Positions 21 to 1,241 of a stretch of 10,308 nucleotides of DNA are shown here, in pieces. The notes under the pieces are model-generated. The model was not told the DNA's origin. It saw only the letters and a list, made by a program, of their open reading frames with translations, and did no database searches. The position numbers and the translations under genes were made by a program. The first letter of the stretch is position 1. The number at the start of each line of letters is the position of its first letter. The stretch is from an uncultured Syntrophobacteraceae bacterium (GTDB taxonomy: Bacteria > Desulfobacterota > Syntrophobacteria > Syntrophobacterales > Syntrophobacteraceae), in the NCBI GenBank assembly GCA_937889795.1, contig CALBZH010000606.1, positions 1 to 10,308 on the forward strand. Reading direction: 5' to 3'.

Positions 21-335
21 GTGCGGGGGCTGTTCCGGCGTCGTCGGCCGCTGGCACTGGCCGGGATGCTGGGAGCGCTTGCGGTCAGCGTGAGTGGCTG
101 CAGCTGGTCGCAGGCGCTGGGGATGGGCTGGCCGGAAGGCATCACCCCGGAAGCGCACCTGAACCGGGAGCTGTGGATCGGCGCCGTCATCGCCTCCCTG
201 GCCGTCGGCGGCATCGTGTGGGGGCTCATCTTCTGGTCTTCGGCCTTCCACCGCAAGAAGGCGACCGACACCGAGTTGCCCCGCCAGTTCGGCTACAACA
301 TGCCCTTGGAGCTGGTGCTCACGGTGATGCCTTTT
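21..335 (+). pseudogene. ctaC: Cytochrome c oxidase subunit II (CtaC), N-terminal fragment, actinobacterial type
   Basis: CtaC is the CuA-bearing subunit of the aa3-type terminal oxidase and passes electrons from the cytochrome bc1 complex to the oxidase core. Seen here: an Arg-rich start (residues 5-9), a hydrophobic signal, and a lipobox ending VSGC with Cys27 as the likely lipidated residue. After these come [13 protein letters not shown], a first membrane helix at about 51-73, and [19 protein letters not shown], a very characteristic mycobacterial/nocardial signature. The second helix is cut a few residues in, and the whole CuA cupredoxin domain is absent, so the fragment cannot work. The 70% GC content fits an actinobacterium and is unlike the rest of the window. 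It is probably foreign DNA joined to this contig. Recognition of the family is firm; the genus cannot be named. Confidence 0.85.
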
Positions 336-1241
336 CTGATCATCTCCGGTGAATCCATCCAGGATGTGGTTGCGCTCACGGCAGAATGGGGTGCATACGA
401 CTATCTGGTCAAGCCGTTTTCCTATACCGAGCTGAAGAAGCGTGTGGATGCCATCTTTGCGAAATACCAAGATCCCGAAGAGGTCCTTTTCAGGGAGATC
501 GAAAAGCTGAAGGAGCAGGGCTATTGGGCTGAGACGCTCGAAAAGATCGGCATCTTGGAACGGAAGATCCCCGACCTGAAGCCCAAGTGGCTGAATCTCA
601 AGGGGGAATGCCTGCTTCATCTCAACCAGCCCGAACAGGCGGAGCTGTGTTTCCAGCGGGCGATCGGCAAGTCCGATATCTTTCTTCCGGCGTACAAGAA
701 CTATGCGGCACTCAAGCTCAAGCTCGGAGACAAGAAAGAGGCGATCAACCTGCTTGAGGTCGCGGACCGGCTGAGTCCCCTGGAGGTGGATCGGAAGATT
801 GGGCTAGGACGACTGCTGTTTCAGGCGGATCGGGAGGAAGAGGGGAAGGCCTGCTTGGAAAAAGCTGTCAAGATCGCGCCTCAAGATGAAAAGGAGAGCT
901 ACCTGCTCAAGGTCGCGGAGGCTTACATGGAGGCCGAATGCTTCAATGAAGCGGAGGAGCTTTTCGTCAAAGTCCTGAAAGACAATCCCAATCAAGTTGA
1001 AACCTACAATCGGCTTGGAATCGCTCTGCGTCGCCAGGGGAAGCTTGCCGACGCAGAGCGATTCTACTCCATGGCGTTGAAGAGCCACCCGCACAACGCG
1101 GCGATCCATTACAACCTGGGAGTCCTGCAGCTCAACCGGCAGGAAAAGGAGAAGGCGCGGCATTCCTTCAAGGAAGCGCTTCGGCTCGACCCCAGCTTCA
1201 AGAGGGCCGCCGAGCTGTTGGCCAAGATAGACGCCTCCTGA
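21..1241 (+). CDS. Chimeric open frame: CtaC N-terminus joined to REC-TPR protein
   Basis: A single 406-codon frame opens at GTG 21 and ends at TGA 1239-1241, but its two halves do not belong together. Residues 1 to about 103 match actinobacterial cytochrome c oxidase subunit II: a lipoprotein signal, a first membrane helix and the [18 protein letters not shown] stretch. Residues from about 104-109 onward are the last part of a receiver domain (SGES, then LVKPF with Lys131) followed by TPRs. GC is 70% over bases 1-300 and about 54% over 361-660, and codon choice shifts at the same place. The short string PFLIIS is plausible on both sides, so the join probably sits at a chance similarity. No protein family known to me combines these parts. 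The frame is open to the left edge, so GTG 21 is only the first start visible. I would not annotate this as one functional protein; the halves are listed separately. Confidence 0.85.
325..347. other. Junction between unrelated sequences
   Basis: On the left the reading matches CtaC up to LELVLTV (ending near 326). On the right IISGES (from about 339) belongs to a receiver domain. The intervening MPFLII could come from either parent: actinobacterial CtaC continues with a similar PFLII stretch, and a receiver strand 4 can read the same way. The codons cct ttt at 330-335 are unlike the C/G-ending codons to their left, which favours a break near 325-333. No inverted repeat, target duplication or attachment-site sequence is visible here. 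Confidence 0.75.
336..1241 (+). CDS. Response-regulator receiver/TPR protein, 5' end missing
   Basis: The recognisable native part starts around residues 104-109 of the open frame. It shows the receiver-domain strand 4 motif (IISGES), the [10 protein letters not shown] motif around strand 5 with the conserved Lys131, and the final helix ([13 protein letters not shown]). The aspartate phosphorylation site and strands 1-3 would lie upstream and are lost at the join. After a linker (about 150-185) come roughly six TPR units, at about 188-221, 222-255, 256-289, 290-326, 327-360 and 361-394. The last two are clearest ([19 protein letters not shown] and [16 protein letters not shown]). TPRs mediate protein-protein contacts, so the intact protein was probably a phosphorylation-controlled adaptor; its partner is unknown. 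It converges on purN across 35 bases. GC (about 54%) and codon use fit the rest of the window. Confidence 0.75.

What the first reader, a model, noticed from the sequence alone, without database searches (positions are those of the whole stretch)
21..1241. Open frame joins actinobacterial CtaC to a deltaproteobacterial-type REC-TPR protein
Residues 1-103 are unmistakably actinobacterial oxidase subunit II, cut inside its second helix. From about residue 104 the frame is the second half of a receiver domain plus TPRs. GC drops from 70% (bases 1-300) to about 54% (361-660) at the same point. Neither half is complete, so a functional fusion is very unlikely. A chimeric contig end or an amplification chimera, joined at the shared PFLIIS-like stretch, is the simplest explanation. 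Automated annotation would report this as a novel membrane-anchored REC-TPR lipoprotein, which would be wrong.
Basis: partly seen in the sequence, partly recalled or inferred. Interest (0 to 1): 0.8.

Follow-up and report, generated by a model that had tools for sequence, protein, structure and literature searches.

The report
Artificial join of two unrelated genes
The first 330 or so bases of this sequence are a piece of a mycobacterial respiratory gene stuck in frame onto a signalling-type gene of an unrelated bacterium, almost certainly by a sequencing or assembly error, so the apparent fusion protein is most likely not real.

Summary
From nt 3, 115 residues are identical to residues 22-136 of an intact mycobacterial-type CtaC (P0001), up to nt 347. 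From nt 330, 302 of 303 residues are identical to an intact 388-aa receiver-TPR protein (P0121); the nearest relative with an organism name is Syntrophobacteraceae. PFLIIS is the longest peptide that these two parents share, and the join lies on it (nt 330-347). GC3 changes best at nt 330, from 0.90 to 0.73; the seven downstream genes have 0.66-0.73. A search across the join listed no spanning protein (120 of 1446 hits shown), and 0 of 311 proteins held match both sides. Both halves are broken: CtaC loses half of TM2 and its CuA domain, the receiver its phospho-acceptor Asp. Simplest cause: a chimeric read or fragment at a contig end. Not a real feature.

The parts
3..329 (+). Fragment of mycobacterial-type ctaC (residues 22-130 of the 368-aa parent P0001): lipobox region (name recalled), TM1, start of TM2; the gene's start is not in the window
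330..347 (+). Join zone: PFLIIS, encoded by both parents; the longest peptide that P0001 and P0121 share
348..1241 (+). Rest of a Syntrophobacteraceae-type receiver-TPR gene (residues 92-388 of parent P0121): end of the receiver domain, TPR repeats, stop
1277..2125 (-). purN, first neighbour on the right-hand side; its GC3 fits the receiver-TPR part
   Evidence: TIGR00639, over cut-off; GC3 0.721

Best explanation
An artificial chimera. A contig of a Syntrophobacteraceae-like bacterium (nt about 330 onwards: receiver-TPR gene, purN, purQ, purL, mntP-like, TIGR02266 family gene, pheT, pheS) was extended at its left end by a short mycobacterial ctaC fragment, joined within a stretch that both genes encode as PFLIIS. 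Shown: two separate intact parents, the join zone, and the loss of essential parts on both sides. Inferred: that the join arose in vitro or in assembly (chimeric read or fragment, template switching, ligation, or a misjoin at microhomology of at most about 21 nt) and not in a living cell; and that the genes after purN come from the same organism as the receiver-TPR part (from GC3 only; their taxa were not searched). Neither half should work: no CuA domain and a broken second transmembrane helix on the left, no phospho-acceptor aspartate and no first half of the receiver on the right.
For: 115 of 115 residues identical to intact CtaC P0001 and P0002 through nt 347. 302 of 303 residues identical to intact P0121, 301 to P0122, 293 to P0123, 287 to P0126, the last named Syntrophobacteraceae bacterium. 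PFLIIS is the only 6-mer shared by P0001 and P0121 and no 7-mer is shared; 10 of 2000 shuffled pairs share any 6-mer. So the join sits on the parents' longest common stretch. GC3 change point at nt 330. Query across the join (residues 60-160): 120 rows listed of 1446, best 116 bits, CtaC rows covering 48-50% and the nine P0121-P0129 rows 78% of the query; a copy of the fusion should cover all of it and rank first. Of 311 proteins held, 191 match the CtaC side, 79 the receiver side, 0 both. CtaC P0001 finds only weak matches in 8 of 55 genomes of the class of G001 (best 45 bits, 28-40% identity), and the family aa3_CtaC_Actin has none in G001 itself (the 14 control genomes: 9 ring, 1 over the cut-off). 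Precedent: chimeric MDA junctions at complementary stretches of 2-21 nt in over 70% of cases (PMC1855051, abstract); chimeric contigs between unrelated sources (PMC7417191, abstract).
Against: The frame stays open across the join, which looks gene-like; but a join on a peptide that both parents read in the same frame keeps it open without selection. No reads, no coverage and no close parent DNA were available, so DNA microhomology is not measured. The window's own protein was not among the listed hits either, and only 120 rows per search are shown, so the searches do not prove that no other copy exists. The purN neighbourhood of the receiver-TPR gene was not seen in any of 62 loci. Some named right-side relatives at lower identity are Acidobacteriota (for example P0147, 54%), Nitrospinae or Nitratidesulfovibrio.
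Confidence: 0.97

Rival explanations
1. Within the artefact reading (the odds given are conditional on it): a pure assembler misjoin, as opposed to a chimeric molecule or read.
For: Papers on metagenome assembly mention chimeric contigs (search listing); chimeric assembled sequences are reported in PMC7417191 (abstract).
Against: The stretch that both parents could share exactly is at most about 21 nt, from the aligned residues, at or below the smallest usual assembly k-mers (recalled); about 330 nt lie left of the join, about the size of one read or fragment (inference).
Confidence: 0.3
2. A real recombination in nature: mycobacterial ctaC DNA captured by a Syntrophobacteraceae-like chromosome, giving a membrane-anchored TPR lipoprotein.
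For: The frame is open, the lipobox region and TM1 are kept, the TPRs are complete.
Against: 115 of 115 residues and the high GC3 unchanged; an intact receiver-TPR allele at 302 of 303 identity exists; no second copy of the fusion among the hits seen; both pieces are cut inside folded parts.
Confidence: 0.01
3. A rearrangement inside a Mycobacterium genome that carries DNA of another bacterium from nt 330 on.
For: None beyond the join itself.
Against: All seven downstream genes have GC 0.56-0.60 and GC3 0.66-0.73, like the receiver-TPR part and unlike the ctaC part. They include purL, pheS and pheT, housekeeping genes that one would not expect as a foreign insert (inference; their taxa were not searched).
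Confidence: 0.005

Closest known systems
aa3-type cytochrome c oxidase subunit II, CtaC (NCBIfam NF050117 aa3_CtaC_Actin), mycobacterial
   Same: nt 3-347 encodes residues 22-136 of an intact CtaC without a difference
   Different: start, half of TM2 and the CuA domain (PF00116) are missing
Syntrophobacteraceae-type receiver-TPR protein (388 aa, P0121 family; PF00072 plus TPRs)
   Same: nt 330-1241 encodes residues 86-388 with one substitution
   Different: receiver residues 1-85, with phospho-acceptor D61, are missing
Chimeric junctions of amplification or assembly (PMC1855051 abstract, PMC5372508 passages, PMC7417191 abstract)
   Same: two pieces joined at a short shared stretch
   Different: the route is not shown here; MDA chimeras are mostly inverted and favour one molecule (PMC1855051 abstract), whereas this one joins two organisms

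Membership tests
Cytochrome c oxidase subunit II (CtaC) | NCBIfam NF050117 over its cut-off of 250 bits | tested here: not met
   114.1 bits, model positions 2-98 of 244 only
Cytochrome c oxidase subunit II (CtaC) | C-terminal CuA domain PF00116 | tested here: not met
   not among the 25 of 30 Pfam rows shown for the frame, nor in the single row for nt 3-329; the frame leaves CtaC at residue 136 of 368
Cytochrome c oxidase subunit II (CtaC) | Two complete N-terminal transmembrane helices | tested here: not met
   best 19-residue mean hydropathy: TM1 2.27 in both; second region 2.45 in the parent, 1.52 in the chimera
Receiver-TPR response regulator | Complete receiver with phospho-acceptor aspartate | tested here: not met
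   PF00072 19.2 bits against a cut-off of 30.2; D61, invariant in 12 aligned relatives, lies in the lost part
Receiver-TPR response regulator | TPR array | tested here: met
   TPR_2 E 2.5e-29, 5 stretches
Chimeric artefact | Each side has a separate intact parent that is (nearly) identical up to the join | tested here: met
Chimeric artefact | Join not found in other sequences | tested here: met
   none spanning among 120 listed of 1446 hits; 0 of 311 proteins held match both sides; the 42-nt join has 0 exact matches in viral contigs, which is weak because no relative of either parent was found there
Chimeric artefact | No spanning reads, or a coverage step, at the join | not testable with these tools
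   no reads available
Chimeric artefact | DNA microhomology of both parents at the join | not testable with these tools
   DNA of neither close parent was found

The most novel reading that the evidence does not exclude
A very recent natural in-frame capture of a mycobacterial lipoprotein and membrane-anchor segment by a Syntrophobacteraceae-type receiver-TPR gene, giving a membrane-tethered TPR scaffold that no longer responds to phosphorylation.
Probability: 0.01. Interest if true: 0.5.

Novelty: not a real feature. Interest (0 to 1): 0.05.

Why it matters
Only as a caution: automatic annotation would report a novel lipoprotein-TPR fusion and a mycobacterial gene in a Syntrophobacteraceae-like genome. 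In-frame joins can arise without selection when two proteins share a short peptide. The ctaC piece left of about nt 348 should be set aside and not counted as gene transfer.

Tried and rejected
Tried without result: the window's own genome (none held); close relatives of the receiver-TPR part in genome contigs (27 pattern stretches, none a relative by tblastn); CtaC P0001 in viral contigs (13 stretches, none a relative) and P0121 there (no stretch); the 42-nt join in viral contigs (0); window 1-347 in plasmids, 1-2200 in phages, 1-700 in E. coli genomes (no match); tblastn of P0001 in plasmids (405 records, all under 60% identity, best Tsukamurella 50.9%). The second genome-contig scan gave 42 loci, best 57-59% identity. 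Protein P0121 in 26 genomes of the family of G001: best full-length identity 59%; receiver-TPR DNA in 55 genomes of the class: 6 with a match, the longer ones 67-70% identical over part of the query, short pieces up to 88%. So the exact DNA overlap at the join could not be measured. A Hi-C type ligation was considered: one GATC lies in the join zone (nt 338) but there is no GATCGATC in the window, so there is no sign of it; a simple sticky-end GATC ligation is not excluded. P0148 reads MPFLIISG like the join, but it is an ordinary receiver-TPR protein with its own receiver half. Rfam: no match in the window at gathering cut-offs. A paper search on receiver-TPR proteins (12 of 34 papers listed, none opened) showed no title on this family.

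Full report
What is there. Reading from nt 3, its first 115 residues are identical to residues 22-136 of an intact 368-aa cytochrome oxidase subunit II, P0001 (and of P0002), up to the serine at nt 345-347; the next residue differs, G in the window and V in CtaC. The GTG at 21 is the codon of V28 of that protein, so it is not a start; the window begins inside ctaC. The family model aa3_CtaC_Actin matches nt 3-329 at E 9.7e-31. P0001 and P0002 bear no source; the organism names shown among the 120 rows (of 1723 hits) are Mycobacterium, the closest M. servetii at 95% over 80% of the query.

From the proline at nt 330 the frame is residues 86-388 of an intact 388-aa receiver-TPR protein, P0121, with one substitution in 303 residues; P0122 differs at 2, P0123 at 10 and P0126 at 16 of 303. 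P0126 is named as a Syntrophobacteraceae bacterium and its longest contig is 2.86 Mb. Relatives at 50-59% identity lie in three named Syntrophobacteraceae assemblies. Some lower-identity named relatives are Acidobacteriota, Nitrospinae or Nitratidesulfovibrio (120 of 255 hits listed).

The join. PFLIIS is the only 6-mer shared by P0001 and P0121; no 7-mer is shared, and 10 of 2000 shuffled pairs share any 6-mer. The join lies on this longest common stretch. GC3 is 0.899 over the 109 codons before nt 330 and 0.727 over the 297 codons from 348; the best single change point is nt 330, a fit reached by 3 of 1000 shuffles, and positions 303-351 lie within 2 log units. The seven genes downstream have GC3 0.66-0.73, so the right-hand part goes with the rest of the window by composition; the taxa of those genes were not searched. 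They are purN, purQ, purL, an mntP-like gene, a TIGR02266 family gene (PilZ-like, recalled), pheT and pheS. Of these, purN, pheT and pheS pass the cut-off of their best model; purQ, purL, mntP and the TIGR02266 gene are below it.

Is it recurrent? A search with residues 60-160, across the join, returned 1446 proteins, 120 listed. The best scores 116 bits. Nine rows (P0121-P0129) are the receiver-TPR proteins; they cover 78% of the query because the ends of the two parents before PFLIIS happen to resemble each other a little (TD, PR and G align). The other rows cover 48-50%, the CtaC side. A copy of the fusion should cover the whole query and rank first. Of the 311 proteins held from the three searches, 191 match the CtaC side and 79 the receiver side at E up to 1e-5, and none matches both. 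One receiver-TPR protein, P0148, reads MPFLIISG but has its own receiver half. The window's own protein was not listed either, so absence from the lists is strong but not absolute. In 55 genomes of the class of G001 (the genome of L001, Syntrophobacteraceae), P0001 found weak matches in 8 (best 45 bits, 28-40% identity), and the aa3_CtaC_Actin family found none in G001.

Function. Neither half should work. The left loses half of the second transmembrane helix (best 19-residue mean hydropathy 2.45 in the parent, 1.52 in the chimera) and the CuA domain. The right loses receiver residues 1-85 with the phospho-acceptor D61, invariant in the 12-protein alignment.

Cause. From the aligned residues, both parents could share at most about 21 nt of identical DNA at the join (18 nt of PFLIIS, two before, one after), and about 330 nt lie to its left. 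This fits one chimeric read or fragment that became a contig end rather better than a graph misjoin, but that is inference: no reads and no close parent DNA were to hand, and whether the window's left edge is the contig's end is not known. Joins at complementary stretches of 2-21 nt are described for MDA (PMC1855051, abstract), with over 95% of overlaps 3-13 nt in one human data set (PMC5372508, passages), and chimeric contigs between unrelated sources are reported (PMC7417191, abstract). Whether this sample was amplified is unknown.

Results against or neutral. The frame is open across the join, but a join on a peptide that both parents read in the same frame keeps it open without selection. 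The receiver-TPR gene beside purN was not seen in any of 62 loci (E up to 1e-8); L001, where the relative is 55-57% identical, has other neighbours. This bears on gene order, not on the join.

Verdict. Not a real feature; interest low.

Noticed in passing
window 1018-1064: A near-perfect inverted repeat (19-nt arms, 95% complementary, 9 nt between) lies inside the TPR coding region at the conserved NRLGIALRR motif; nt 1000-1085 fold as RNA at -42.1 kcal/mol, z -5.49, 0 of 200 shuffles as stable. The same 65-nt stretch folds at -41.1 in the window and at -8.7 to -33.0 in the stretches of other, distant loci shown, so it does not look conserved.
   Followed up: partly
window 1277-2125: The PurN frame is 282 aa; the 192-position PurN model is spread over residues 18-250, so it seems to hold an insertion of about 40 residues.
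   Followed up: no
window 9475-9661: A 187-nt gap separates pheT and pheS, with no Rfam match at gathering cut-offs.
   Followed up: no
window 5970-6521: An mntP-like frame (NF008546, 89 bits, below its cut-off of 214) sits between purL and a TIGR02266 family gene.
   Followed up: no
L014 8235-14173: In a Nitrospinota locus a distant receiver-TPR relative (29% identity) lies about 3 kb from pheS and pheT, genes that the window also carries further right.
   Followed up: no
P0121-P0157 family (L001, L002, L003): A conserved 360-400-aa receiver-TPR family of Syntrophobacteraceae and others, with an invariant [12 protein letters not shown] stretch in the 12 proteins aligned; one paper search listed nothing on its function (12 of 34 listed).
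   Followed up: partly
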